Positions 2,632-20,289 of a stretch of DNA of 40,067 nt are shown here, in pieces (position 1 is the stretch's first letter; each line of letters starts with the position of its first letter). Origin of the DNA: Acidimicrobiales bacterium (GTDB lineage Bacteria > Actinomycetota > Acidimicrobiia > Acidimicrobiales > DASWMK01); the NCBI GenBank assembly GCA_036399815.1, contig DASWMK010000285.1, positions 1 through 40,067 of the forward strand, read 5' to 3'. The notes beneath the pieces are model-generated. The model worked only from the letters and a program-made list of their open reading frames with translations, was not told the DNA's origin and made no database searches. Made by a program: the position numbers and the translations under genes.

Positions 2632-3549
2632 GTGATCGAGCCGGTCGACATCGTCTGGGTGGACGGCGAGCTGGGGTCGATGGACCGCAGCCGGGTCAGC
2701 CTGCTGACCCACACCATGCACTACGGCTTCGGCGTGTTCGACGGCCTGCGCTCCTACCGCCAGGACAGCGGCGACGTGATGCTGTTCCGGGCGCTCGAGC
2801 ACATGGAGCGGGTCGTGCGCTCGGCCGAGGGCATCTCGATCCCGGTCGCCTACGACGCCGACGCGCTGGTCGAGGCGGCCCAGGCCGTGCTGCGGGCCAA
2901 CGAGCTGGACGACGCCTACGTGCGGCCGCTCGTCTACGTGGGCGAGCCGAACATCATCTTCAGCCACTGGCTGAACAGCGTCCACGTGGCGATGATCGCC
3001 TTCCCGTGGACGGGGTACTCGGACCGCAACCGGGAGCGGGGGTCGTCGGCCAAGATCGCCCCGTGGCCCCGGCCGAAGGCGCTGGCCGACCTCTACAAGT
3101 TCAAGGCCTGTGGCCACTACCTGCTGAACGTGACCGCCTTCTCGGAGGCCCAGCGCAGCGGGTTCGGGCAGGCGATCTTCGTGGACGAGGACGGCGCCGT
3201 GTGCGAGGCGACCGGCGAGAACGTGTTCGTCGTGAAGGACGGCGCGGTGGCCACCCCGCCGTCGTCCCGGTCGATCCTGCCCGGCATCACGAGGGACACG
3301 GTGCTGACCCTGGCCCGGGACCTCGGCCACGAGGCCGTCGAGCGGGACCTGGTCGTCGACGACCTGCTCGGCGCCGACGAGGTGTTCACCACCGGCACCG
3401 CCTCCGAGCTGCTGCCCCTGCCGAAGATCGAGGACCGGGTGATCGGCGACGGGACGATGGGGCCGGTGACGGCGGCCATCCAGCAGCGGTTCTCCGACGC
3501 CGTGCGGGGCCGGGAGCCGGCCTACGCCGACTGGCTCACCAAGGTCTGA
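2632..3549 (+). CDS. ilvE: Branched-chain amino acid aminotransferase
   Basis: This 305-aa fold-type IV PLP enzyme transfers amino groups between glutamate and branched-chain 2-oxoacids, the last step of valine, leucine and isoleucine synthesis. The catalytic lysine is Lys158 (KFKACGHY), followed by the class-IV signature CEATGENVF at 191-199, ILPGITRDTVL near 216 and the phosphate-binding TTGTASEL near 253. Length is normal for the family. The GTG start follows GGGAGG by five bases, inside the end of the methyltransferase gene. Its genomic partner is ilvD, which ends 39 bp away on the opposite strand, so two late steps of the pathway lie side by side but in separate transcripts. A D-amino-acid transaminase role is possible but less likely given this context. 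Confidence 0.92.
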   Translation: MIEPVDIVWVDGELGSMDRSRVSLLTHTMHYGFGVFDGLRSYRQDSGDVMLFRALEHMERVVRSAEGISIPVAYDADALVEAAQAVLRANELDDAYVRPLVYVGEPNIIFSHWLNSVHVAMIAFPWTGYSDRNRERGSSAKIAPWPRPKALADLYKFKACGHYLLNVTAFSEAQRSGFGQAIFVDEDGAVCEATGENVFVVKDGAVATPPSSRSILPGITRDTVLTLARDLGHEAVERDLVVDDLLGADEVFTTGTASELLPLPKIEDRVIGDGTMGPVTAAIQQRFSDAVRGREPAYADWLTKV

Positions 3550-7181: not shown

Positions 7182-8456
7182 GTGCCCGCGCTCGGCGCGC
7201 TCGTGGCCGAGCCGCTCTACGTGCTGGCCGACACGGCCGTCGTCGGCCACCTCGGCACGCCGGAGCTCGGCGGCCTGGCCGTCGCCACCAGCGTCATCCT
7301 CACCGGCTACGCGGTGTTCATCTTCCTGGCCTACGGGACGACGGCGGCCGTCTCCCGCCTGCTCGGGGCCGGCGACGAGCGGGCCGCCGCCGGCCAGGCC
7401 GTGCAGTCGCTGTGGCTGGCGGCCGGCATCGGGGCCGTGCTGGCGGCGGCCGGCTTCGTCGCCGCGCCCGCCCTGGTCGACGCGCTGGGCGCCGACGGCG
7501 CCGTCCGCGGCCACGCCCTGCTCTACCTGCGGGTCAGCCTCCCCGGCGTGCCCGCCCTCCTGCTGACCCTGGCCGGCGTCGGCTACCTGCGCGGCCTCCA
7601 GGACACCCGCACCCCGCTCGCCGTGGCCGCGGCGTCGGCGGCCGGGAACCTCGTCCTCGAGCTGGTGCTGATCTACGGGCTCGGCTACGGCATCGGGGCG
7701 TCGGCGCTGGCCACGGTCGTGGCCCAGTGGGGCGCGGCGGCCGTCTACGTGGTGCGCATCGCCGCCGCCGTCCGGCGCCTCGACGTGGGCCTCCGCCCCG
7801 ACGGGCGGGCCATCGCCCGCCTGGCCGCCGTGGGCGGGGCGCTCCTCGTCCGCACCGCCGCGCTGCGGGCCTCCCTCACGGTGGCGACCGCGGTCGCCAC
7901 CCGCCTCGGGCCCACCGACGTGGCGGCCCACGCCATCGCCTTCGAGCTGTGGAACCTGCTCGCCCTGGTCCTCGACGCCGTCGCCATCGCCGGCCAGGCC
8001 ATCACCGGGCGGCTGCTCGGCGCCGGCGCCGTCGCCGAGGCGAGGGCCGCCGGCCGGCGGATGATCGAGTGGGGGGTGATGTCGGGGGTGGTGCTCGGCG
8101 CCGCCGTCGTCGCCCTCCGCCCGCTGCTGCCCGGCGTGTTCACCGACGACCCGGCCGTCACCGCCCTGGCCGGGTTCCTGCTGTGGTGGGTGGCGGCCAT
8201 GCAGCCGGTCAACGGGGTGGTGTTCGTGCTCGACGGCATCCTCATCGGCGCCGGCGACCTCCGCTTCCTCGCCGTCGCCATGCTCGGCGCCGCCGCCCTC
8301 TTCGTCCCGGCCGCGCTCGCCGTCGCCACGGCCGGCGCCGGCATCGGCTGGCTGTGGGCCGCGCTCGGGCTGCTCATGCTGGCCCGCCTGGCCGTGCTCG
8401 GCGCCCGCTTCGCCACCCCGGCGTGGTCGGTGCCCGGCGCCGTCCGGGCCGCCTGA
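7182..8456 (+). CDS. MATE-family multidrug exporter (DinF-like), start codon uncertain
   Basis: This is a 12-helix cation-coupled exporter of the MATE family. It shows DTAVVGHLGTPELGGLAVA near the N-terminus and two homologous halves of six helices. The first canonical in-frame start is GTG 7182, giving 424 aa. The preceding codons encode REILRLGVPALG, which looks like the normal conserved beginning of helix 1 in DinF-type proteins, so the protein should begin about 15 codons earlier. In that stretch no ATG, GTG, TTG or CTG exists. The triplet at the expected place (7137) is ATC. The gene follows the MFS exporter and ends one base before the convergent immunity-candidate gene. Substrate is unknown. 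Confidence 0.88.
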   Translation: MPALGALVAEPLYVLADTAVVGHLGTPELGGLAVATSVILTGYAVFIFLAYGTTAAVSRLLGAGDERAAAGQAVQSLWLAAGIGAVLAAAGFVAAPALVDALGADGAVRGHALLYLRVSLPGVPALLLTLAGVGYLRGLQDTRTPLAVAAASAAGNLVLELVLIYGLGYGIGASALATVVAQWGAAAVYVVRIAAAVRRLDVGLRPDGRAIARLAAVGGALLVRTAALRASLTVATAVATRLGPTDVAAHAIAFELWNLLALVLDAVAIAGQAITGRLLGAGAVAEARAAGRRMIEWGVMSGVVLGAAVVALRPLLPGVFTDDPAVTALAGFLLWWVAAMQPVNGVVFVLDGILIGAGDLRFLAVAMLGAAALFVPAALAVATAGAGIGWLWAALGLLMLARLAVLGARFATPAWSVPGAVRAA

Positions 8457-9146
8457 CTACGCGACCGGGTCGGCGCGGACCACGTGGGCGGCGACGAGCT
8501 CGCCGTCGCGTCCGCCCTCGCGCCGGGCCGCCGTGGCGACGGCGGTCTGCGGCCCGAGCGGGGTGACCACGGTGTGCTCGACGGCCCCGTCGTCGAAGGT
8601 GAGCCGGACCGTGTAGCGCACCGGTCGGGGCGGCCCGCCCCGCTCGCTCGCCGCCAGCCCCCACCTGGCGGGGTCGAGGTGGGCGCCGACCAGGTCGGCG
8701 CCCAGCTCCTGCACGTCGGGGTCGTCGTGCGAGGCTGCGGCGGCCAGGACGACCTCGAGGGTCGCGAGGTCGCCGAGCTCGACGAGCAGGTTCGCCAGGT
8801 GCTGATACCCCTCGTAGGCGAACCCGTCGATGACCTCCTCGACGGCCGACGGCAGGCGGATCGCCAGCTCCCTACGGGGGAACGTGCGGATCACGTCGGC
8901 GGCGAGGACGGCGGCCGTGAGCGGCCCGTCGAGGTCGAGCACGATCTCGGGGAGCAGGTCGGCCTTCTGCCTCGGTGAACGGGCGGCGAGCAGCACCAGC
9001 GCGGCGACCGAGTGGCCGCGGAGCATCGCCCGCAGCCACGTGGTCGCCCTGGCGTCGCCGACCACGGGCCCGGTGGCGTCGTACCAGGCCCGGGTGGCGG
9101 CGATGAGCGCCGCCACCTCGGGCTGGTCCTGGACGTCGTCGGTCAC
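8457..9146 (-). CDS. Hypothetical protein, candidate immunity partner of the RHS protein
   Basis: I recognise no named family in this 229-aa protein. Residues ~10-150 look all-helical and repetitive (leucine/alanine-rich helices separated by short turns, such as HLANLLVELGDLATLEVVLA), suggesting HEAT-like repeats. Residues ~165-229 (VRYTVRLTFDDGAVEHTVV onward) look like a small beta-rich domain. There is no signal peptide or TM segment, so it should be cytoplasmic. The GTG start lies four bases after the TGA of the giant RHS gene, so translation is probably coupled. A small non-secreted protein directly behind a polymorphic toxin is the usual position of its immunity gene. That role is inferred from position only. 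It ends with no gap against the MATE gene. Confidence 0.6.
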   Translation of the reverse strand: MTDDVQDQPEVAALIAATRAWYDATGPVVGDARATTWLRAMLRGHSVAALVLLAARSPRQKADLLPEIVLDLDGPLTAAVLAADVIRTFPRRELAIRLPSAVEEVIDGFAYEGYQHLANLLVELGDLATLEVVLAAAASHDDPDVQELGADLVGAHLDPARWGLAASERGGPPRPVRYTVRLTFDDGAVEHTVVTPLGPQTAVATAARREGGRDGELVAAHVVRADPVA

Positions 9147-9150
9147 CTGC

Positions 9151-9490
9151 TCACTTGGGCGTCTTGCCGTAGTAGAGCCAGCCGAGGCCGGCGTAGAGCG
9201 ACGAGAACTCCTCGATCGACATCCGCCTGGTCGTGTAGATCGTGTGGTGGCTGAGCGGCGCAGGGCCACCGTAGTCGGCGCCGTCCGCGACGACGGCGAG
9301 CCCGGGGGGCACCCGCGACCCGCCGGGCAGCCACCACGCGTGGGAGTTCTTCCAGAACACGGCCAGGTCCTCGAACTTGGCGAACGTGGAGGCGCCGTAG
9401 TGCTGGCCGGTCTCCTCGTTCTTCTGGCCGGGGCAGATCTGCCCGTCCTGGTCGGGCTTCACGTCCGTGCCCGGGCGCGGCGGCCTCGGG
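9151..9490 (-). other. C-terminal toxin-like domain of the RHS protein (Tse2-like ADP-ribosyltransferase fold candidate)
   Basis: The last ~110 residues lie beyond the conserved core, where RHS proteins carry their variable toxin. The pattern LPGGSRVPPGLAVVADG, then HHTIYTTRRMSIEEF (His3245, His3246), then a final LGWLYYGK resembles what I recall of Tse2-like ADP-ribosyltransferase-fold toxins: Leu-Pro-x-Gly-x-x-x-Pro-x-Gly-Leu, a His-Tyr/Thr strand, and a Met-Ser/Thr-x-x-Glu-Phe helix. This was matched by memory, not by a profile search. A YD-protein tail without toxicity remains possible. Confidence 0.42.
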
Positions 9491-12400
9491 CGGGTCGCGT
9501 TGCCGCCGGCGTACAGCGTCGTCGGCGTGACGCCGCCTCCACCGCCGTCGCTGTCGTCCGGCGCCGGCTCGGGGCAGTCGTCGTTGCCGTCGGGCGGCGG
9601 CGGGATGGGCGGGACGACCGGGTCGGGCGCGGGGCCGGGACCGGGGCCGGGGTTGGGGTTCGGCGCCGGGCCGGGACCGGGCGCGGGCCCGGGGCCGGGG
9701 CCGGGGTTGGGCCCTGGGCCGGGGTTCGGCCCCGGTCTCGGTCCTGGACCGGGCGCGGGTGCGGGCGCCGGCGCCGGTGCCGGCTCCGGCTCGGGCGCCG
9801 GCGGGGCGTCCGGGTCGGTGTCGGGCGGTGCGGGCGCCGGGCAGTAGACGGCGCAGAGGATGGCCAGCGCGGCCGCGACCGCGAGCAGCAGCGCCCGGAC
9901 CCGGTAGCCGGTGTAGGCGGCCGCCGGCGCCGTCCGCACCGTCGTGTTCTGCGTCACCAGCGAGTACTCGGCGACGAACATGCCGCTCGGGTCGGTCCAC
10001 GTCGTCGGGTTGCCGGCGACGTAGCCGTACGGGTTGTAGCCGGCCACGCCGGGGGCGCCGGGCCGCACCGGGTCGACCGAGAGGAACCGGCCCGTGCCCG
10101 TCTCCAGGTCGCGGGCGCCGAGGTGGACGCGACCGCCCTCCTGGAGCCCGCCGGCGAAGCCGAGGGCCGGCGCCGTCCCCGTCGACGTGCGGACCGAGCC
10201 GAACGGCGAGTACGACCGCCGCCCGGCGACGGCGCCGCTGCCGTCGGTGACGGCCCTGACCGAGCCGACGGCGTCGGTCAGCAGGGTCGCCGTCTGGGAG
10301 CCGGTGACCGCCGCCACCGGGCCGGACGGCCCGTGGACGAAGGCCGCCGACCCCTCGGACAGCAGCGCCGGGGTGTCGGCCAGGCGGTCCCACACCAGCG
10401 CGTCGCCGCCGTCGGCCACCCGCACCCCGTCGCCGTCGCTGGCGTAGGTGGTGGTGCCCGTCGGCGCGGCGACGCGGGTGAGGTCGCCCCGCCAGTCCCA
10501 CGTGTAGGTGCTCGACCCGTCGGACGTGAGGTTGCCGGCCCCGTCGTAGGTCCTGGCCGTCCCGGCCACGTCGACGAGCTGGGACGCGGCGTCGTAGCCG
10601 TAGGTCACGGTCGGCGTGCCGGTCAGGGTCGACCTCGTCCGGTTCCCGGCGGCGTCGTAGCCGTAGGTGGCGGTGGTCCCGCCGGGGAACGTGACGGCCG
10701 TCAGCCGGTCGGCGGCGTCGATCGTGTAGCTCTCGGTGCCGGCGCTCGAGGTGACCGCCGTCCGGTTGCCCTCGGCGTCGAGGGTGTACTGGAAGAAGTC
10801 GAGGACGGTCGTCCCCCGCCGGTGCTCGACCCTGGTGAGCCGGCCGGCCACGTCGTAGGACCGGGAGGTCGCCACCCCGTTGGAGTGGCTCTCGGTGAGG
10901 ACCCGCCCGTCGCCGTCGTAGGTGTAGGAGGAGGTCGCCCCGTTCCAGGCGGCGACCGTGCGGACCCGGTCGGCGGCGTCGTAGCCGTAGTTCACGGTGC
11001 CGGACGGCTGGCGCATCCACTCGCGCCGGCCGGCGGCGTCGTAGCCGTAGGCGACGGTGCCGCCGGGGGCGGCCACCTCGGTGACGCGCCCGACCTCGTC
11101 GTACCCGAACGTCGTCGTGCCGGTGCCGTCGGTCATCGACGTGCGCCGGCCGAGCTCGTCATAGGTCGCCGTGACCGAGCCGAACGGCGACGACTCGCCG
11201 ATCGGGTTGCCGGCGGCGTCGTAGGTGAACGTGGTCGTGATCCCCCGCCCGTCGGTGGCCGTGGCCAGCCGGCCGGCGAGGTCGTGGCTCCAGCGCCGCG
11301 TCCGGCCCACCGGGTCGCGCTCCTCGACGGGCGCGCCGAGCGGGCCGTACGTGGTCGTCCAGGACTGGCCGTTGGCGTCGGTCAGGCGGGTCCGCTGGCC
11401 GGCCAGGTCGTAGCCGAAGCGCACGGCGTGGCCGAGCGGGTCGGTGACCGAGGCGATCCGGCCGACGGGGTCGTAGGCGTAGTCGGTGTCCTGGCCGCGG
11501 GCGTCGGTGACGGTCACGGTCCGGCCGGCGGCGTCGTAGGACGTCGCCGAGCGGTTCCCGAGCTCGTCGGTGACGGCGGTGAGCAGGTTCCGGGGGTCGT
11601 AGGCGTAGGTGGTGGTGACCCCGGCCGCCGACGTCGCCGACGTGACCCGCCCGGCCGCGTCGTAGGCCTGGGTCCGCTCCTGGCCGAGCCCGTCGGCCAC
11701 GCCGACGATCCGCCCGGCCGCGTCGTAGCGGTAGGTGGTCGTGTGGCCGAGCGGGTCGGTGACCGTGGAGAGCCGGCCGGCGGCGTCGTAGGCCCGCGTC
11801 GTCGACCCGCCGTCGGCCGCGACGGTCTCGACCAGGCGCCCGGCGGCGTCGTACGCCGACCGCGTGACGCTGCCGTCGGCGGCGGTGAGCGCCGTGACCC
11901 GCCCGGCCGGGTCGTGGGCGTAGCCGGTCGTGGCGCCGCCCGGGTCGGTCACCGAGGTGACGAGCCCGCGCCGGTCGTAGCCGTAGGCCGTCGTGCGGCC
12001 CAGCGGGTCGGTGGCCGCGAGGAGCAGCCCCGCGGCGTCGTACTCCCACGACGACACCCCGCCGCCCGCGTCCGTGGACGAGGCCTGGCGCCCGGCGGCG
12101 TCGTAGGTCCAGGTGGTGGTGCGGCCGACGGCGTCGGTCATCGACACCAGCCGGCCGGCGCCGTCGTAGGCGTAGGTCGTCTCCCGGCCGTCGGCGGCCG
12201 TGGCGCCGACGAGGTTGCCGTTGCCGTCGTAGGCGTAGGTCGTCACCTCGGCGAGCGGGTCGGTGTACCGCACGAGGCGGCCGGCGCCGTCGTAGCCGAA
12301 CTTCGAGGCGTGCCCGGCCTGGTCGGTCTGCTCGAGGAGCCGGCCGAACTGGTCGTACGTGAACGCGACGCCGTGGCCCAGCGCGTCGGTGACGGAGAGC

Positions 12401-15400
12401 AGGTTGCCGGCCTCGTCCCACGTGCTCGACGTGACGCCGCCGGTCGGGTCGGTCTCGGTGAGGACCCGGCCGAGCGGGTCGTAGGTGTAGCGGGTCGTGC
12501 CGCCGAGCGGGTCGCGCTCGGAGAGCACGCGGCCGGCGGCGTCGAAGGTCCACGTCGTCGTCCGGCCGGTCCGGTCGGTGGCGCTCGTCCGGTTGCCGCG
12601 GTCGTCGTAGCCGTACGTCTCGGCGTGGCCGTCGGCGTCGGTGATCGACGCCAGGGTGCCGTCGTCGTTCCAGCGGTAGCGGGTGACGTTGCCGGCCGGG
12701 TCGGTCCAGGTGAGGATCTCGCCGAAGGCGGAGTAGGTGATCCTCGTCGTGCGACCCTCGGCGTCGCTGACGCTCGTCAGGTTCCCGCTGCCGTCGTAGG
12801 TGCCCCGCGACGTGTGGCCGGCGGGGTCGGTGCGCGATGTCACCCGGTCCTCGTCGTCCCAGGTCCAGGTCGTGGTGTCGACCACGCCGTCGTGGGCCTG
12901 CTCCTGGCGGACCGGGTTGCCGCGGTCGTCGAAGGTGGTGATCGTCGTGAGCCGGGACTCGGCGTCGGTGACGACCTCCTGGCGGCCGGCGACGTCGACG
13001 GCGACGGCGGTGCGGTTGCCCTCCCCGTCCACGACGGCGGCGAGCCGGCCGTCGTCGTCGTACTCGAGCGTGCGGTAGGGCCGCCCGCCGGCGTCGATGC
13101 TCGTCAGCAGGTGGCCCGGCGCGTACCCGAAGGTGGCCGGGTCGCCGTTCTGGTCGACGACCCGCACGAGGTCGCCGGCCGCGTCGTAGGTGTAGCCGAC
13201 GGTGCTGCCGTCGGGCCCCTCGACGGTCGTGATGCGGCCCTGGGCGTCGCGGATGAAGCGGACCGACGGCCCCGCGGACGACACGATGCCGGCGTCGGTG
13301 AACGTCGTCGTCGTGCCGGCCCGGTCGAGGGCCCGCAGCAGGCCGTCGCCCATGTCGAGCAGGTACTCGGTGCCGAAGCGGTCGGTGAGCACGAACCGGG
13401 TCGGGTCGTACAGGCCGTCGGTGCCGAAGAAGCCGCCGTAGAGGTTGCCGTCGCCGCTGAACCACAGCGAGCCGTCGGCCGCCTCCAGGGTCGACGTCGT
13501 GCCCGGGCGGCCGGTGAACTCCGCCTGGGTGAGGCCGGCGAGGAACGTCGAGCCCCTGGCCGGCGTGAGGTCGAAGACCTCGTTGCGGCCGTCGGGCCAG
13601 GTGACGCTCACGTAGTGGGGCCGGTCGCTGCTGAAGCACAGCGGGACGAAGATGAGCCCGCCGCCGCACTGGCGCATCGACCACCCGCCCTGCCCGAGCG
13701 GGCCGTTGGTCGCCACCCGGAACGAGGCGACCGACAGGGTCCAGCCGGCGCCGAAGTCGCCGACGGCGGTGTCGAAGGAGTCGTAGGTGCGCAGCACCCG
13801 GAGGGGCAGGCCGGCGATGGCGACGGCCATGTCCTCGAACGTGGTCGTGTAGCGGCCGAGCTTGAGCTGGCCGTCGACCACGAACGGCGAGACGGTGACG
13901 GAGATGCCGCCGTTGGACGAGGCCGACTCGACGACGAGCTCCCAGCCGCCGTTGGCCAGCACCGTCGGGTCGACGGTGGCGGCCACGTCGGGGCCGGTGC
14001 CCGAGGCCAGCTCGCGCACGTCGTCGGTGCCGGTGCGCCGGACGCCGACGGTCCACGAGACGACGGTGGCGCCGGCCGGCGGGGTCAGGGTGGCGGCCAC
14101 CGGGGTCGGGGCCGAGAGGATGGTGCCGGCCGGCGGCTCGAGGCCGCCGACGGTCGGGGCCGGCAGGCCGTTCCCGCCGCCGCCACCGCTGCCCCCGCCG
14201 GGGACGCGGAGGGCGACGACGGTGACGTCGGCCTCCTCGTTCGTGTGCGGGTCGTCGGTCAGGATGGGCTGGAGCTCGGCGGACGTGATGCGGCCCTGGG
14301 CGGCCAGGCTGGTGACGCCGGCCGGGAGCGGGTCGGCCACCTTCGCCTCGAACGTGACCGTGAACGAGCTGTCGGCCACGAGCGTGCCCGCCGCCACCTC
14401 GACGACCTCGTCGCCGAGGGCGCCGCCCTGCACGACCGACCCTCGGGTGGTCGTGACCGACCCGATGACGAGGGTCGACGCGGGGTCGAGGGGCACGGCC
14501 AGGTCGACGGCGGTGGCGCCGACGGTGCCGAGGTTCGACACGGCCGCGGTGTAGCGGAGGGTGTCGCCCGGCGAGGGCATGCCGTCGCCGCCGACGTCGC
14601 GGACGAGCGACGCCGAGAGCGTGCCGCTGAGCGCCGGCCGGGGCACGACCACGCGGGTGGTCGTGGGGTCGGCGCTGCCGGCGACGCCCGGGTCGTCGGT
14701 GCGGACGGCGTCGAGCTCGGTGCTGGTGACCGAGCCCTGGACGGACAGGACGGCGACCCCGTCGGGCAGCGGGTCGTCGATCACGACGTCCCACGCCAGC
14801 GTGGCGGCCGCGCCGGCGCCGACGGTGCCGACGTCGACGACGACCTCGTCGCCGGTGCCGGTGCGCACCGAGCCGGTCGAGGTCGTGACCGAGCCGGGGA
14901 CGAGCGCGGTGTTGCGGTCGACCGGCGCGGTCAGGACGACGCCGGTGAGCGGGCTGCCGCCCCGGTTGGTGACGGTCGCCTCGTAGCGGATGGTGTCGCC
15001 CGGCGTGACGAGGCCGTTGCCGTCGCCGTCGGTCCGCAGGACGTCGCGCAGGCTGGCGGCGAGGCCGGGCGGGGTCGACACGACGGTCTCGGCCGTCGCG
15101 CCGGACGGGCCGTAGGCGTTGCCGGCGCCGTCCCGCCACGTCGCCTCGGCCCGGTTGTGGAGGGTCCCACCGGTGGACGAGGCGGGCACGTCGTAGGTGG
15201 CGGTGTGGTCGGAGACCTGGGCCGGGGCCAGCGCGCCGGGCACGCCGGCCACCGGGAGGGTCGTGCCGTCCACCCGGTCGGTGAAGGCCAGCTGCTCGGC
15301 GGGGGTCGAGCCCTGGTTGGCCAGGCGGAGGTCCCACGTGAGGTGGTCGCCGGGCCCGGCCGCGGCCGGGCCGGTGGCCGTGACCCGCACGGCGGGGACG

Positions 15401-18400
15401 TGGCGGGTGGAGCGGTCGGCGACCTGCGGCGAGATCAGCAGGCCGACCCCGCCCGTCGCCCTGGCCACGGCGGTGGCGAACAGGGCCGCGTCGTCGGCGG
15501 CGAGGAGGCGGGCGACGTAGGCGTCGTCGGTCTCGCCGTCGCCCTTCGGGGCCAGGGTCGGCACCTCGTAGGCGCGGTCCTCGGTGGCCGAGGCGCCGGG
15601 CGCCAGCGTGCCGAGGTCGAGCACGGCCGGGTCGCCGGTCGGGGTGGTCATCGTGACCGTGACGTCGTCGACGTCGCCGGACAGGGCGCGGAGCGCGTCG
15701 ACGAAGTCGGCGCTGTAGCGGTACAGGGTCCGCAGCTGGGTGCCGGGCGCCGTCCAGCCGAGCTCGACGTGGGTGCGGATGCCGTCGGTGCGGGCCGGGT
15801 CGAGCAGGAGGTCGACCTGCTCGGGGGTCAGCGCGACGAGGGCCTGGTAGCCCCACGTGGCGAGGCCGCCGGGCTGGACGACGGTGCCGACCACCCGGTC
15901 GCCGGAGGCGGCGTAGGCGACGCCGGTCGCCGCGTTCGGGCGGGTGCTCAGGTCGAGCCCGTCGGCCGTCCCCGACAGGTGCTGCCACGTGCCGTCGGTG
16001 GCCGAGCGGCGCTCGACGGCCAGCGAGAACGAGTCGATCGTGGCCGCCGCCGTGTCCACGTCCTCGGCGCCGAACAGGCCGGGCACGACGAGCAGGGCGC
16101 CGTCGTTCGTCGCCGTCAGGCGGTAGCCGATCGGGTCGCCGGCGAAGACGTCGTCGGCGTCGGCCTCGAGGCCGAGGCCGAGCTCGGGGACGAGCAGCGG
16201 GCCGGCGACGACGCTGTCGGGCCGGCCGCAGGCCGCGCCCCTGATGGTGACGTCGCCGCCGGTCAGGTCGACGCGGTCGCCGACGATGCCGCAGTAGAAG
16301 CGGTTGGAGCTGCCCGACACCTCGATCTCGCCGCGCTCGGCGAACAGCACGCCGAGGAACCGGGAGGTGGAGGCGGCGACGTCGATGGCCCGGTCGCCGG
16401 TGGCGCCGGACAGGAACAGCAGCCCGTCGTGGTACGGGTCGAACGCCGGCCGGGAGCCGTCGACGGTGATGGCGCCGGTGGCGGCGAGCGTGATGCGCCC
16501 GCCGACGGCCGACCCGTTGACCTTCACGGCGCAGGGGACGTAGTAGACGCCGGCCGCGAGGACCTGGTCGACCACGTGCCACAGCCCGCCGGCGCAGCGC
16601 GACGACATGTCGTGGTAGGCGGCGCCCACCTCGCCGGCCACCGGCCCGCCGGGGGCGTAGTCGGCCACGTCGAACCGGAACGGCAGGTCGCCGGCCGGCC
16701 CGCGGACGGCGCGCGGCACGAAGATGTGGCGGTCCTCGATCGAGGCCGTGCCCACGTAGGTGGTCGTGCCCCTGACGGTCTTGGTGGAGCCGAGCACCCG
16801 CAGGTCGCGGTTGGAGTGCACGGCGCCCTCGATGGTCCCGCTCGCGCCCGACCACTCGAAGGTGCGGGGCGCGGTGCGGCTGTTGGCCCACACGGCGACG
16901 GGCTCCTGCACGGCCAGCTGGGCGACGGTCGTGGTGGCCTCGCCGCCGTCGTCGTCGGCCAGGGTCACGGTGACCGTGAACGTGCCGTGCTCGTCGAACA
17001 CGTGGGAGCCGAAGAAGCCGCCCCAGCCCGAGCCGTCGGCGGTGACCGGGACGTCCTCGGCCGCCGTGCCGTCGCCCCAGTCGATGGTGGCGGCGTGGGT
17101 GTCGAGCCAGCCGGCGTCGGTGAACGAGGCGTTCACGACGGTGACGCCGCCGGCGTAGCCGCTGCTGGCCTCGGCCTGCACGGCGGGGTCGACGTTCTCG
17201 ACCGTCACGACGACGCGGTCGCTGTCGGTCAGGCCGAAGCCGTTGGTGACGGTCACCTCGAAGGTGTAGACGCCGTCGTCGGACGCGAGGAACGACGGCC
17301 GCGCGCTCGTGGTCGACGACAGGGTGATCGGCGGGCCGTCGCCGTCGACCAAGGTCCACCGGTAGGCCAGCGGGGCGCTGCCGGCGCCGAGGACGGCGCA
17401 CGTCGTGACCGAGCCCTCGCCGCCTGCGTCCTCGCCGGTGACGGTGAGGCACAGCTCGTGGTCGCCCGGGGGCAGGTCGGGCAGCGGGATGCGGAGGTCG
17501 GCGCCGGCCGGGCCCTCGAAGGGCGGCGGCGGCGTCATGTGGGGCGCGAGGTCGAGCGGGTCGCCCCCGTCGACGGTGAGCGTCGCCCCGGTGAGACGGC
17601 TGCCGATGACCGCCTGGAGGATGTCCGGCAGGTTGCCGACGTCGGGCACGTTCGTGCACGTGCCGCCGGTGCGGGCGGCGATGTCGGCCAGCTTGGAGCC
17701 GACCCGCCCGCCGGTGCACGACGAGCCGGCGCCGATGGCGAAGGCGTGGAACGTGGTCGGGTTGGTGCAGGGCAGGACGGTCGTGACGGCCGCGCCCTCG
17801 GTGGCCTCGCCGTCGGACAGGAACACGGCCAGGCGGTTGTCGGCGATGCTGCCGGCCAGGGTGTCGCACGCCGCCCTCGCCGCCGCCGAGAAGTTGGTCC
17901 CGCCGCCGGCCCGCAGGGCTCGCAGGCCCTCGGTGAGGTCGGGCACGCCGTCGGCGTCGGCGTCGGCGCCCGGCGCGATCAGCACCGAGGTGGCCGACGT
18001 CGGGTTCAGGTCGCGGGCCGAGGCGCCCGACGAGAACGACACCAGGCCGACCTGGGCCACGGTGCCGGCGGCCACGACGTCCTGGTGGAGCTCGAGGGCG
18101 GCCGCGATCTCGCAGTCGATGATCCGGTTCGAGAGCCGGTCGCCGTTCTGGTCGCCGCCGCAGCCGCCGGTGAAGTCGGCGCTGCCCGAGACGTCGACCA
18201 CGTAGACGATGGCCGTGTCGGCGGCCGGCGGGCCCTCCCCGATGGCCGCCTGGGCGGCGATGACCGGCCCGTCGTCGCCCGACGCCAGGCCGTTGATGCC
18301 GGCCGACAGCGCGGTGCCGCCGGGCAGGTTGGCCGTCGCCTCGGTCGGCTCCAGCACGGCCGGGCTCGGGTCGATCGACCCGCTGCCGTCGAGGGTGACG

Positions 18401-18981
18401 GCGCTGCCCTCGGGCACCGCCTGGTCGGCGCCGGCCCTGGCCACCGGGTTGCGGCCGACGGTGGGCGGCGGGGGCTCCTCGGGCGGCGGGGGCGGCGGCT
18501 CGGGCGCGATGCCGCCCCTGAACTCGAAGACGTTGTCGTCGTAGTCGCGGTCGCCGCCGCCGAACAGGTCCTCGAACCCGACGCGGGCCAGGCCCTCGCC
18601 GAGGATCTCGACGGCGGCGTGGGCGAGCCCGTCGGGGTTCCGGTCGGCCGGCCCCATGCGGTACTCGTGGCCCTCGACCCTGATCCCGAAGACCAGCTCG
18701 TCGCCGGACGTGAACGGGCCGAGGGTCACGGTCCTCCCGACGTCCCGGTTCGTCGAGATGAAGACCTCCTGGGGCTCGAGGAGCCACAGCTGCGAGGTCA
18801 GCCCGGCCGATGCCGGCAGGACCTCGACCTCGACCATGTCGCCGGTGGCGTACAGCTGCGCACCGATGACGCGTTCGGCGGCCTGTGCCGGCACCTGCGG
18901 CACGAGCACGGCCACCGCCGCCGCCAACGTGGCCGCGACGACGAGGACGGCGACGCGCGCGCGCCCGAAGGCTTTCGACAT
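9151..18981 (-). CDS. Giant secreted RHS/YD-repeat polymorphic toxin-like protein
   Basis: This 3,276-aa protein begins with a Sec signal peptide (residues ~1-34, ending VPAQAAE). It continues with a vWA domain whose metal site is complete (Asp263-Ser265-Ser267, Thr362, Asp390). Next come PKD-like domains (one WGDGT near 635), a beta-rich region to ~900, DUF11-type repeats near 1306 and 1449, and a Gly linker near 1600. Tandem YD repeats run from ~1925 to 2810, leading to an RHS core ending PTTWTDPSGM (2992-3001), which fits the PxxxxDPxG self-cleavage motif. After it come a TM helix (3030-3046), a Pro/Gly linker and a ~110-aa C-terminal domain. Known RHS proteins enclose a toxin in a YD-repeat cocoon. 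Here surface anchoring and delivery to rivals are inferred. The ATG follows a GGGGGGGAG stretch. Confidence 0.92.
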   Translation of the reverse strand: MSKAFGRARVAVLVVAATLAAAVAVLVPQVPAQAAERVIGAQLYATGDMVEVEVLPASAGLTSQLWLLEPQEVFISTNRDVGRTVTLGPFTSGDELVFGIRVEGHEYRMGPADRNPDGLAHAAVEILGEGLARVGFEDLFGGGDRDYDDNVFEFRGGIAPEPPPPPPEEPPPPTVGRNPVARAGADQAVPEGSAVTLDGSGSIDPSPAVLEPTEATANLPGGTALSAGINGLASGDDGPVIAAQAAIGEGPPAADTAIVYVVDVSGSADFTGGCGGDQNGDRLSNRIIDCEIAAALELHQDVVAAGTVAQVGLVSFSSGASARDLNPTSATSVLIAPGADADADGVPDLTEGLRALRAGGGTNFSAAARAACDTLAGSIADNRLAVFLSDGEATEGAAVTTVLPCTNPTTFHAFAIGAGSSCTGGRVGSKLADIAARTGGTCTNVPDVGNLPDILQAVIGSRLTGATLTVDGGDPLDLAPHMTPPPPFEGPAGADLRIPLPDLPPGDHELCLTVTGEDAGGEGSVTTCAVLGAGSAPLAYRWTLVDGDGPPITLSSTTSARPSFLASDDGVYTFEVTVTNGFGLTDSDRVVVTVENVDPAVQAEASSGYAGGVTVVNASFTDAGWLDTHAATIDWGDGTAAEDVPVTADGSGWGGFFGSHVFDEHGTFTVTVTLADDDGGEATTTVAQLAVQEPVAVWANSRTAPRTFEWSGASGTIEGAVHSNRDLRVLGSTKTVRGTTTYVGTASIEDRHIFVPRAVRGPAGDLPFRFDVADYAPGGPVAGEVGAAYHDMSSRCAGGLWHVVDQVLAAGVYYVPCAVKVNGSAVGGRITLAATGAITVDGSRPAFDPYHDGLLFLSGATGDRAIDVAASTSRFLGVLFAERGEIEVSGSSNRFYCGIVGDRVDLTGGDVTIRGAACGRPDSVVAGPLLVPELGLGLEADADDVFAGDPIGYRLTATNDGALLVVPGLFGAEDVDTAAATIDSFSLAVERRSATDGTWQHLSGTADGLDLSTRPNAATGVAYAASGDRVVGTVVQPGGLATWGYQALVALTPEQVDLLLDPARTDGIRTHVELGWTAPGTQLRTLYRYSADFVDALRALSGDVDDVTVTMTTPTGDPAVLDLGTLAPGASATEDRAYEVPTLAPKGDGETDDAYVARLLAADDAALFATAVARATGGVGLLISPQVADRSTRHVPAVRVTATGPAAAGPGDHLTWDLRLANQGSTPAEQLAFTDRVDGTTLPVAGVPGALAPAQVSDHTATYDVPASSTGGTLHNRAEATWRDGAGNAYGPSGATAETVVSTPPGLAASLRDVLRTDGDGNGLVTPGDTIRYEATVTNRGGSPLTGVVLTAPVDRNTALVPGSVTTSTGSVRTGTGDEVVVDVGTVGAGAAATLAWDVVIDDPLPDGVAVLSVQGSVTSTELDAVRTDDPGVAGSADPTTTRVVVPRPALSGTLSASLVRDVGGDGMPSPGDTLRYTAAVSNLGTVGATAVDLAVPLDPASTLVIGSVTTTRGSVVQGGALGDEVVEVAAGTLVADSSFTVTFEAKVADPLPAGVTSLAAQGRITSAELQPILTDDPHTNEEADVTVVALRVPGGGSGGGGGNGLPAPTVGGLEPPAGTILSAPTPVAATLTPPAGATVVSWTVGVRRTGTDDVRELASGTGPDVAATVDPTVLANGGWELVVESASSNGGISVTVSPFVVDGQLKLGRYTTTFEDMAVAIAGLPLRVLRTYDSFDTAVGDFGAGWTLSVASFRVATNGPLGQGGWSMRQCGGGLIFVPLCFSSDRPHYVSVTWPDGRNEVFDLTPARGSTFLAGLTQAEFTGRPGTTSTLEAADGSLWFSGDGNLYGGFFGTDGLYDPTRFVLTDRFGTEYLLDMGDGLLRALDRAGTTTTFTDAGIVSSAGPSVRFIRDAQGRITTVEGPDGSTVGYTYDAAGDLVRVVDQNGDPATFGYAPGHLLTSIDAGGRPYRTLEYDDDGRLAAVVDGEGNRTAVAVDVAGRQEVVTDAESRLTTITTFDDRGNPVRQEQAHDGVVDTTTWTWDDEDRVTSRTDPAGHTSRGTYDGSGNLTSVSDAEGRTTRITYSAFGEILTWTDPAGNVTRYRWNDDGTLASITDADGHAETYGYDDRGNRTSATDRTGRTTTWTFDAAGRVLSERDPLGGTTRYTYDPLGRVLTETDPTGGVTSSTWDEAGNLLSVTDALGHGVAFTYDQFGRLLEQTDQAGHASKFGYDGAGRLVRYTDPLAEVTTYAYDGNGNLVGATAADGRETTYAYDGAGRLVSMTDAVGRTTTWTYDAAGRQASSTDAGGGVSSWEYDAAGLLLAATDPLGRTTAYGYDRRGLVTSVTDPGGATTGYAHDPAGRVTALTAADGSVTRSAYDAAGRLVETVAADGGSTTRAYDAAGRLSTVTDPLGHTTTYRYDAAGRIVGVADGLGQERTQAYDAAGRVTSATSAAGVTTTYAYDPRNLLTAVTDELGNRSATSYDAAGRTVTVTDARGQDTDYAYDPVGRIASVTDPLGHAVRFGYDLAGQRTRLTDANGQSWTTTYGPLGAPVEERDPVGRTRRWSHDLAGRLATATDGRGITTTFTYDAAGNPIGESSPFGSVTATYDELGRRTSMTDGTGTTTFGYDEVGRVTEVAAPGGTVAYGYDAAGRREWMRQPSGTVNYGYDAADRVRTVAAWNGATSSYTYDGDGRVLTESHSNGVATSRSYDVAGRLTRVEHRRGTTVLDFFQYTLDAEGNRTAVTSSAGTESYTIDAADRLTAVTFPGGTTATYGYDAAGNRTRSTLTGTPTVTYGYDAASQLVDVAGTARTYDGAGNLTSDGSSTYTWDWRGDLTRVAAPTGTTTYASDGDGVRVADGGDALVWDRLADTPALLSEGSAAFVHGPSGPVAAVTGSQTATLLTDAVGSVRAVTDGSGAVAGRRSYSPFGSVRTSTGTAPALGFAGGLQEGGRVHLGARDLETGTGRFLSVDPVRPGAPGVAGYNPYGYVAGNPTTWTDPSGMFVAEYSLVTQNTTVRTAPAAAYTGYRVRALLLAVAAALAILCAVYCPAPAPPDTDPDAPPAPEPEPAPAPAPAPAPGPGPRPGPNPGPGPNPGPGPGPAPGPGPAPNPNPGPGPGPAPDPVVPPIPPPPDGNDDCPEPAPDDSDGGGGGVTPTTLYAGGNATRPRPPRPGTDVKPDQDGQICPGQKNEETGQHYGASTFAKFEDLAVFWKNSHAWWLPGGSRVPPGLAVVADGADYGGPAPLSHHTIYTTRRMSIEEFSSLYAGLGWLYYGKTPK
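9590..9840 (-). repeat. Proline/glycine-rich linker encoded by low-complexity repeats
   Basis: Short units encoding Pro-Gly, Pro-Ala and Pro-Asn dipeptides fill RHS residues ~3048-3130, between the TM helix and the toxin-like domain. On the + strand this is a run of CCGGGG/GGTTGGGG-type words with many G tracts. Such linkers commonly span the cell wall, and the DNA is prone to slippage. Confidence 0.8.
10560..13210 (-). repeat. Tandem YD (RHS) repeats within the giant gene
   Basis: Degenerate units of about 63 bp (21 codons) recur throughout, each with the form G-x-x-x-x-Y-x-Y-D-x-x-G-R-L/V. The reverse complement of Tyr-Asp-Ala-Ala-Gly (gccggcggcgtcgta and variants) is visible again and again on the + strand. 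They encode the beta-strand cage of RHS proteins. Confidence 0.9.
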
Positions 18982-19059: not shown

Positions 19060-20289
19060 TCAGAACCCCGTGTCGCAGAAGGGCAGGGGGTCGGTGGCGA
19101 AGAGCGCGTCCGCGGTGGCGACCGCGCCCGGGGACCGCTCCTCGACCAGGCCGGCCCGGCGGAGCACGGCGAAGCGGGCGCCGCCGAGGTAGGCGCTGCC
19201 GAGGTCGCCGGCCGCCAGCACGAGGTCGGGGTCGGCGTCGGTGCGGGCGCACTCGGCGCCGTCGGGGCCGCCGTCGAGGCGGAAGCGGCCGCCGGCCTCG
19301 GGCCGGAACGGGTCGACCACCTCGAGCACGAGCGACCCGTGCGTGCCGTAGCGGCGGGCCGCCAGCGCGGCCGGCACGTCCACGAGGCAGGCCCACAGCC
19401 AGTCGACGATCCCCGTCACCCGCCAGGCCCGGTGGTCGGCCAGGCGCCAGGCGATCGGGTCGTCGAGGGGCCGGGCGTGGGACCGCACGACGTTGGCGAG
19501 GTCGACGTCGAGCAGGAAGCGCCAGAGGGCGGCGTCGACCTCGGGGTCGAGCGCGTACACGCCGACCGGGCGGACCTGGCTGCGGTTGGCGACCTCGTCC
19601 CAGTCCTCCTTGAACCGGTACGACACGAAGCCGTCGGCCACCCCGTCGTCGGACTCGTGGACGGCGACGAACCGGCCGCTCGCGCCGCCCCGGTACGCCT
19701 CCGGGTCCTTCAGCCACAGCTCCCAGTAGCGGTCGCTGCGGGTGACCGACCCGTGGCGCCGCCGGCGGAACGCGTCGTAGAGCGCGGGGACCAGCTTGGC
19801 CGCCTCCTCCCGGCCGACGAGGCGCACCCGCCCGCCGACGGCCGGCGGCCGGCGGAACGCCGACCGGGTCTTGTCGACCTCGACGATGGCCGCCGCGCTG
19901 GCCACGCCGTAGCCGAAGCGGCGGTAGATGGTGCCCTCCGAAGCGGTGAGGATGGCCACCGGCTCGCCCCGCTCGGCCACGTCGGCCAGCTGGTGGGCCA
20001 TCATCTGCGTGAGGATCCCCTGGCGGCGGTGGGTGGGCACCACCGCCACCCAGCTCACGCCGCAGGCCGGCACGGTGCGGGCGCCGGGGACGGTCAGCTC
20101 GAAGGTGTAGGCGCCGGCGGTGCCCACGATCTGGCCGGCCTCGAACACGGCGATCGACCGGTCGGGCTCGAACAGCGCGCCGTACCGGGCGAGCGCGTCG
20201 GCGTCGGGCACGGAGCCGAAGGCGACGCCCTCGGCGAGGAAGAAGTCGTCGGCCTCGTCGGCGGTGACGGGCCGGAGCTGGCGGTCCAC
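19060..20289 (-). CDS. Eis-like GNAT N-acetyltransferase with SCP-like C-terminal domain
   Basis: At 409 aa this matches the Eis (enhanced intracellular survival) family, which combines two GNAT domains with a sterol-carrier-like domain and acetylates amines, including aminoglycosides in some members. The acetyl-CoA motif is VAVVPTHRRQGIL (residues 81-93). The family hallmark IYRRFGYG is at 121-128. The C-terminus ends in Phe409 (PLPFCDTGF), as expected because Eis enzymes use their terminal carboxylate in catalysis. The GTG start at 20289 is preceded 7 nt upstream by TAGAAC and no ribosome binding site. It is transcribed in the same direction as the RHS gene but that gene has its own promoter. 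Substrate is unknown; antibiotic acetylation is only a family possibility. Confidence 0.88.
   Translation of the reverse strand: MDRQLRPVTADEADDFFLAEGVAFGSVPDADALARYGALFEPDRSIAVFEAGQIVGTAGAYTFELTVPGARTVPACGVSWVAVVPTHRRQGILTQMMAHQLADVAERGEPVAILTASEGTIYRRFGYGVASAAAIVEVDKTRSAFRRPPAVGGRVRLVGREEAAKLVPALYDAFRRRRHGSVTRSDRYWELWLKDPEAYRGGASGRFVAVHESDDGVADGFVSYRFKEDWDEVANRSQVRPVGVYALDPEVDAALWRFLLDVDLANVVRSHARPLDDPIAWRLADHRAWRVTGIVDWLWACLVDVPAALAARRYGTHGSLVLEVVDPFRPEAGGRFRLDGGPDGAECARTDADPDLVLAAGDLGSAYLGGARFAVLRRAGLVEERSPGAVATADALFATDPLPFCDTGF

What the first reader, a model, noticed from the sequence alone, without database searches (positions are those of the whole stretch)
8457..18981. Giant Sec-secreted RHS protein with coupled downstream gene: candidate toxin-immunity locus
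Seen: a 3,276-aa protein with a signal peptide, ordered surface modules, YD repeats, a PxxxxDPxG core motif and an unconserved tail. Four bases after its stop is a 229-aa cytoplasmic protein of no recognised family. Known: RHS polymorphic toxins carry a variable C-terminal effector after the core and an immunity gene next. Inferred: this is a contact-dependent or wall-anchored weapon of an actinobacterium, using Sec rather than the type VI machinery typical of proteobacterial RHS effectors; no secretion-system genes are in the window.
Basis: partly seen in the sequence, partly recalled or inferred. Interest (0 to 1): 0.85.

Follow-up and report, generated by a model that had tools for sequence, protein, structure and literature searches.

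The report
Secreted RHS toxin with immunity gene
This is a giant exported bacterial protein whose tip is a predicted relative of the Pseudomonas toxin Tse2, followed at once by the gene of a protein that very probably neutralises it; the same toxin-antidote pair recurs on unrelated carrier proteins in four bacterial phyla, and the antidote family appears in neither of the two family libraries searched.

Summary
Confirmed and sharpened. On the minus strand, 18981-9151 encodes a 3,276-aa protein (signal peptide, DUF4114/VWA/PKD/DUF11 modules, >20 YD repeats, RHS core ending PTTWTDPSG), and 4 nt later lies a 229-aa gene (9146-8457). The tail is recognisable: residues 3150-3276 match Pfam ADPRTs_Tse2 (E 1e-5) and fold with high confidence (pLDDT 96). 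The only significant PDB fold match is Tse2 of P. aeruginosa (5ako_C), which is also the best PDB sequence match. Related tails (31-41% identity) occur in Streptomyces, Rhizocola, Mangrovactinospora, Chitinophaga, Burkholderia, Phytobacter, Hungatella and Enterobacter, on different carriers. In all 13 loci a leave-one-out profile finds a relative of the 229-aa protein's alpha-helical part just downstream on the same strand; none occurs beside 29 RHS loci of the same order that bear other tails. Those loci keep the core but share neither tail nor neighbour. Best reading: a Sec-exported, WapA-like RHS polymorphic toxin with a Tse2-like ADP-ribosyltransferase-fold warhead and a HEAT-like immunity protein with no Pfam or NCBIfam model, unrelated in sequence to Tsi2. 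Toxicity, chemistry, target and entry are inferred. 'Unconserved tail' and 'no recognised family' need correcting; 'wall-anchored' is unsupported.

The parts
9151..18981 (-). RHS polymorphic toxin gene, 3,276 aa
   Evidence: Single ORF; RHS_repeat E 3.8e-167; YD_repeat_2x E 1e-143 and Rhs_assc_core E 1.6e-13
18877..18981 (-). Sec signal peptide, residues ~1-35 (predicted cleavage AQA|A)
   Evidence: Hydrophobic peak KD 2.69 at residues 10-28 after RAR; sequence read directly
18514..18639 (-). DUF4114-like surface module (best stretch residues 115-156)
   Evidence: PF13448 E 1.4e-5 on the isolated segment, just under cut-off
17605..18213 (-). VWA-like domain, residues ~257-459, lying between a short N-terminal PKD-like stretch and the main PKD match
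   Evidence: VWA_2 E 1.2e-5; PF22352 PKD match at 538-594 covers only profile positions 29-84
14217..15381 (-). DUF7507/DUF11-type stalk repeats, residues ~1201-1588
   Evidence: PF24346 E 4e-11, PF01345 E 6.5e-10; TIGR01451
10213..13879 (-). DUF6531-like start and YD/RHS repeat shell, residues ~1701-2923
   Evidence: DUF6531 E 5.4e-5; 25 RHS_repeat stretches
9979..10212 (-). RHS core, residues 2924-3001, ending with the PxxxxDPxG self-cleavage motif
   Evidence: TIGR03696 E 1.6e-13; the only such core in the genome
9838..9906 (-). Hydrophobic segment after the core, residues ~3026-3048
   Evidence: KD 2.45; not reached in 1000 shuffles of the tail; similar segments in 9 of 24 other RHS tails of the order
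9535..9837 (-). Pro/Gly/Ala-rich linker, residues ~3049-3149
   Evidence: Sequence read directly
9154..9534 (-). C-terminal Tse2-like toxin domain, residues 3150-3276
   Evidence: PF18648 E 1.1e-5; PDB sequence profile and fold both name Tse2 5ako_C; model pLDDT 96.1
8457..9146 (-). Immunity gene (229 aa): HEAT-like helical part, residues ~1-160, family match 38-152
   Evidence: Leave-one-out profile 31-33 bits, best decoy 5.7 bits; alpha-helical model
8460..8642 (-). Extra C-terminal strand-strand-helix-strand domain of the immunity protein, residues 169-229, absent from all relatives
   Evidence: Alignment A4; model E176-184, E187-195, H199-209, E217-227; one marginal match in 346 genomes

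Best explanation
A Sec-exported RHS polymorphic toxin with its cognate immunity gene, built like Bacillus WapA/WapI. The YD repeats are expected to form the RHS shell. The core motif PxxxxDPxG is expected to cut the chain and free the C-terminal domain. The warhead (residues 3150-3276) is a Tse2-like domain with an ADP-ribosyltransferase-type fold, expected to act in the cytoplasm of a competing bacterium in an NAD-dependent way. The adjacent HEAT-like protein is probably translationally coupled (4-nt spacing), has no signal peptide, and is expected to bind the warhead inside the producer and its kin. Shown here by sequence and prediction: domain order, tail homology to Tse2, fold, tail-immunity co-inheritance, and modular swapping. 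Inferred: export, self-cleavage, toxicity, chemistry, target, entry, and immunity by direct binding.
For: Tail: Pfam ADPRTs_Tse2 E 1.1e-5 and 6 of 10 relatives match it, best 4.5e-7. A family profile against all PDB sequences ranks Tse2 first (5ako_C, E 0.01). The model (pLDDT 96.1, pTM 0.89) has one significant PDB fold match, Tse2 again (E 8.8e-4, prob 1.00, TM 0.60). The aligned segment contains both sites whose mutation inactivates Tse2 (T79A/S80A and V109A/K110A, PMC3325213): S80 aligns with the family's invariant serine (window residue 3198). Immunity: a profile made only from the genes downstream of the other tails finds the 229-aa protein at 32.6 bits, against a best decoy of 5.7 bits among 2000 shuffles and the window's other frames. 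Leave-one-out, 13 of 13 loci have the relative just downstream on the same strand, and 0 of 29 control RHS loci do. Modularity: the same tail sits on RHS carriers in Bacteroidota, Pseudomonadota and actinobacteria and on short Pro/Glu-rich carriers in Streptomyces and Mangrovactinospora. In the window's order 26 of 29 RHS loci keep the core, but none has this tail or this neighbour, and 24 tails are nearly all unlike each other. A Phytobacter plasmid carries the pair between an Imm8-family gene and an immunity-26 gene.
Against: No experiment. The window's own Pfam hit is at or just under the curated cut-off (25.5-26.6 against 26.6 bits), and identity to Tse2 in the fold match is only 20%. Published reviews disagree on how firmly Tse2's ADP-ribosyltransferase chemistry is established: PMC6099711 reports it, PMC12133291 calls the mechanism unknown. 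The immunity model is only moderately confident (pLDDT 84, pTM 0.65), and its fold matches are generic helical solenoids with no E-value under 0.001. The complex was not modelled. The immunity matches at four degraded or distant loci are weak (14.5-22.6 bits).
Confidence: 0.87

Rival explanations
1. The toxin-immunity pair is real, but the ART-fold domain does not transfer ADP-ribose: it destroys NAD(P), or acts in another way, as some ART-fold RHS toxins do.
For: An ART-fold RHS toxin family (Tne5) is reported as NAD(P) glycohydrolases (PMC13285283, listed); Tse2's target and mechanism are called unknown in a 2025 review (PMC12133291); identity to Tse2 is only 20% in the fold match.
Against: A review of the Tse2-Tsi2 structure reports NAD-dependent ADP-ribosyltransferase activity (PMC6099711); the only significant fold and sequence match is Tse2.
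Confidence: 0.25
2. The RHS protein is a structural or adhesive surface protein, and tail and neighbour are a remnant or not a toxin at all.
For: VWA, PKD and DUF11 modules are typical of adhesive or stalk proteins; some related cassettes are broken (Burkholderia stagnalis L008 and L017, Enterobacter L019).
Against: The window's tail is intact, folds confidently, and keeps an intact coupled immunity gene that selection would not maintain in a remnant; the tail-immunity link holds in 13 of 13 loci.
Confidence: 0.06
3. The weapon is delivered by a contractile injection system instead of Sec.
For: The genome has two phage-sheath-like genes on another contig, C120.
Against: A clear signal peptide starts the protein; no PAAR gene in the genome; the sheath genes are on a different contig.
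Confidence: 0.05

Closest known systems
Tse2/Tsi2 of Pseudomonas aeruginosa (PDB 5ako)
   Same: Tail fold and conserved residues, including the serine whose mutation with its neighbour abolishes Tse2 toxicity.
   Different: Tse2 is a small free-standing effector carried by the H1-type VI system; here the domain is the C-terminus of a 3,276-aa Sec-signal RHS protein. Tsi2 did not appear among matches of the immunity profile against PDB sequences; the window's immunity protein is a larger HEAT-like protein.
WapA/WapI of Bacillus subtilis
   Same: Signal peptide, surface modules, YD repeats, RHS core, C-terminal toxin, downstream immunity gene (WapA toxin delivery: PMC5566331, abstract; B. subtilis scores for the RHS core; the rest of the WapA anatomy is from general knowledge).
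   Different: WapA's warhead is a tRNase; here it is Tse2-like. N-terminal modules differ.
RHS/HEAT-immunity associations of Zhang et al. 2012 (PMC3482391)
   Same: HEAT-repeat proteins listed as immunity partners of RHS-type toxins, and RHS toxins exported by T2SS/Sec routes in actinobacteria.
   Different: There the partners are Tox-REase-7 (a nuclease) and Ntox34; Tse2 is not mentioned in the held text.
ART-fold RHS effectors of type VI systems (Tre23, RhsP2, Tne5, Vorin)
   Same: ART-fold C-terminal toxin after an RHS core with an adjacent immunity gene.
   Different: Type VI delivery and other ART subfamilies; none of these was named by the fold or sequence searches.

Membership tests
RHS polymorphic toxin | YD/RHS repeats and RHS-associated core with PxxxxDPxG | tested here: met
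RHS polymorphic toxin | Tail after the core variable between relatives that share the core | tested here: met
   Core found in 26 of 29 loci, tail in 0; only one similar pair among 24 tails plus the window's
RHS polymorphic toxin | Immunity gene directly downstream, co-inherited with the tail | tested here: met
   13 of 13 loci, 0 of 29 controls; 4-nt spacing
RHS polymorphic toxin | Tail toxic, neighbour protective | not testable with these tools
   Needs expression assay
Tse2-type ADP-ribosyltransferase toxin (PF18648) | Match to the family profile | tested here: met
   E 1.1e-5 at 26.6 bits, exactly the curated cut-off, for residues 3150-3276; 25.5 bits on a longer piece: borderline on score, supported by six members
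Tse2-type ADP-ribosyltransferase toxin (PF18648) | Tse2 fold | tested here: met
   Foldseek E 8.8e-4, prob 1.00, TM 0.60 to 5ako_C
Tse2-type ADP-ribosyltransferase toxin (PF18648) | NAD-dependent ADP-ribosyl transfer | not testable with these tools
   Inferred from the relative only
Tse2/Tsi2 pair | Tsi2-family immunity protein | tested here: not met
   Neighbour has no Pfam or NCBIfam family; Tsi2 absent among profile matches to PDB and among the 50 listed PDB fold matches of the immunity model
Type VI PAAR-RHS effector | PAAR domain or PAAR gene in the genome | tested here: not met
   None in the RHS protein or genome
WapA-like Sec-exported RHS | Signal peptide plus surface modules before the repeats | tested here: met
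Wall-anchored surface protein | Sortase motif or wall-binding domain | tested here: not met
   No wall-binding family among Pfam matches; the C-terminus is the toxin

The most novel reading that the evidence does not exclude
Tse2-like toxins form a broad, cross-phylum polymorphic toxin family outside type VI secretion. They are guarded by an uncatalogued HEAT-like immunity family that arose independently of Tsi2, and in this genome the immunity protein has gained an extra C-terminal domain that may retune its binding or add a second function.
Probability: 0.6. Interest if true: 0.55.

Novelty: new variant of a known kind. Interest (0 to 1): 0.45.

Why it matters
It puts a Tse2-like warhead on a Sec-exported RHS carrier and links Tse2, whose target is still described as unknown, to a family in at least four phyla. 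A second, unrelated immunity fold against the same toxin fold gives a handle on which surface must be blocked. The defined immunity family would also let annotators recognise orphan immunity genes that now read 'hypothetical protein'.

Tried and rejected
Pairwise BLASTP of the 229-aa protein with the Streptomyces neighbour gave nothing; only the profile showed the relation. Single-sequence searches of 248 genomes of the order for the 229-aa protein gave only three marginal hits outside the window's genome; the one in L003 lines up with a 105-aa frame and none covers more than about 60 residues, so I judged them chance. No plasmid hit for the 229-aa protein alone. No relative of the tail in viral contigs. 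A base-composition sign of recent transfer was sought and is weak: tail 71.7% G+C against 75-77% in the core, repeats and N-terminal part. A phmmer match of the tail's last 94 residues to nephrocystin SH3 (E 0.34) was judged chance. I did not splice out the VWA domain to rescore the PKD domain, because that would join flanks inside a toxin gene. A first count of hydrophobic segments after other RHS cores missed minus-strand loci and was redone.
Full report
Observation. Both genes are on the minus strand. The ORF 18981-9151 gives 3,276 aa; the next ORF starts with GTG at 9146, four bases after the TGA, and ends at 8457. The long protein has a signal peptide and, in order, DUF4114-like, PKD/VWA, DUF7305-like (weak), DUF7507/DUF11, DUF6531-like, more than 20 YD repeats and the RHS-associated core. 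The core ends in PTTWTDPSG, the PxxxxDPxG motif described as a predicted self-cleavage site (PMC7764402). After it come a hydrophobic segment, a Pro-rich linker and a globular domain.

What the tail is. Residues 3150-3276 match PF18648, ADPRTs_Tse2, at E 1.1e-5. Relatives were found on plasmids and in genomes: Streptomyces (three), Rhizocola, Mangrovactinospora, Chitinophaga, Burkholderia (three records, two of them with the same broken cassette), Phytobacter, Hungatella and Enterobacter. Six of ten full or partial tails match the same Pfam family and no other. A profile of the family, run against all PDB sequences, puts Tse2 first at E 0.01. An AlphaFold2 model from seven natural sequences has pLDDT 96.1 and pTM 0.89, and Foldseek finds one significant PDB match, Tse2 in the Tse2-Tsi2 complex (E 8.8e-4, probability 1.00, TM 0.60). 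Sequence and fold searches, run separately, agree.

Active region. In the Tse2 alignment the chain numbering is offset by 21, inferred from the fact that T79, S80, V109 and K110 then all fall on the right letters. S80 lines up with the invariant serine of the family (window residue 3198). The pairs T79/S80 and V109/K110, whose replacement inactivates Tse2 (PMC3325213), both lie in the aligned stretch. Other invariant residues are R3169, D3233, H3245, T3247 and M3254.

What the downstream gene is. By itself the 229-aa protein resembles nothing in Pfam or NCBIfam. But a profile built only from the genes that follow the other tails finds it at 32.6 bits; the best of 2000 shuffles and the window's other frames reaches 5.7. 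Repeating this with each locus left out in turn, all 13 loci have the family member immediately downstream of the tail on the same strand, including broken copies (14.5 bits at the weakest), while 29 control RHS loci with other tails have none. The model is a stack of helices with HEAT/ARM-type neighbours in PDB (not individually significant), plus a C-terminal strand-strand-helix-strand domain found in none of the relatives and only marginally in one of 346 genomes.

Modularity. In the window's order, 48 of 298 genomes have an RHS core match. In 29 fetched loci the core is recognisable in 26; the window's tail and its neighbour in none. Twenty-four complete tails show only one similar pair, and many are followed by their own small gene at -4 to +6 nt. 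Conversely, the Tse2-like tail sits on unrelated carriers: RHS proteins in Chitinophaga, Burkholderia and Rhizocola (there with ricin-type lectin domains), and short Pro/Glu-rich proteins in Streptomyces and Mangrovactinospora. A Phytobacter plasmid carries an orphan copy between an Imm8-family gene and an immunity-26 gene. The pair moves as a unit; this is the signature of polymorphic toxins.

Mechanism. Most likely: Sec export, RHS shell formation, self-cleavage at the core motif, entry of the freed domain into a neighbour, NAD-dependent damage there, and neutralisation in kin by the HEAT-like protein. Only anatomy, homology and co-inheritance are shown. The review literature reports Tse2 as an NAD-dependent ADP-ribosyltransferase (PMC6099711), yet a 2025 review calls its mechanism unknown (PMC12133291), so the chemistry stays open. 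The hydrophobic segment after the core, with similar ones in 9 of 24 other tails, could help translocation; this is a guess.

Known or new. RHS toxins with Sec/T2SS-type export in actinobacteria and HEAT-repeat immunity proteins are already described (PMC3482391), and WapA is the functional model. I found no paper in the held library on a Tse2-like RHS tail or on this immunity family; subscription papers are not held. The finding is therefore a new toxin-immunity variant of a known kind.

Noticed in passing
L009:499-4039 (Phytobacter plasmid pTMTA97303): Orphan RHS tail plus immunity gene sits between an Imm8-family gene and an immunity-26 gene, i.e. an immunity array on a plasmid; the toxin and immunity ORFs overlap.
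   Followed up: partly
L007, L014, L015 (Streptomyces, Mangrovactinospora): The same toxin domain ends short Pro/Glu-rich proteins with no RHS repeats and no Pfam match; how these are exported is unclear.
   Followed up: partly
L008 and L017 (Burkholderia stagnalis): The two records carry the same broken cassette: toxin frame truncated and immunity gene fragmented; B. ubonensis (L016) has an intact pair.
   Followed up: partly
G000:C120:678-3725: Two phage-sheath-like genes in the window's genome, suggesting a contractile injection system elsewhere.
   Followed up: no
L022 (G043, same order): Closest RHS core in the order (45% over the 322-aa query); its tail stops after 50 aa and a transposase-like ORF (judged by eye) follows directly, perhaps an insertion that removed the toxin.
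   Followed up: no
window 17542-18450 (-): A VWA-like domain appears to be inserted into a PKD domain: only the second part of the PKD profile matches, after the VWA.
   Followed up: partly
window 8460-8642 (-): The immunity protein has a 61-residue C-terminal domain not seen in any relative; origin unknown.
   Followed up: partly
window 7182-8456 (+) and 19060-20289 (-): Neighbours are a MatE-type transporter (converging) and an acetyltransferase with an SCP2-like domain; neither looks like part of a secretion system.
   Followed up: yes
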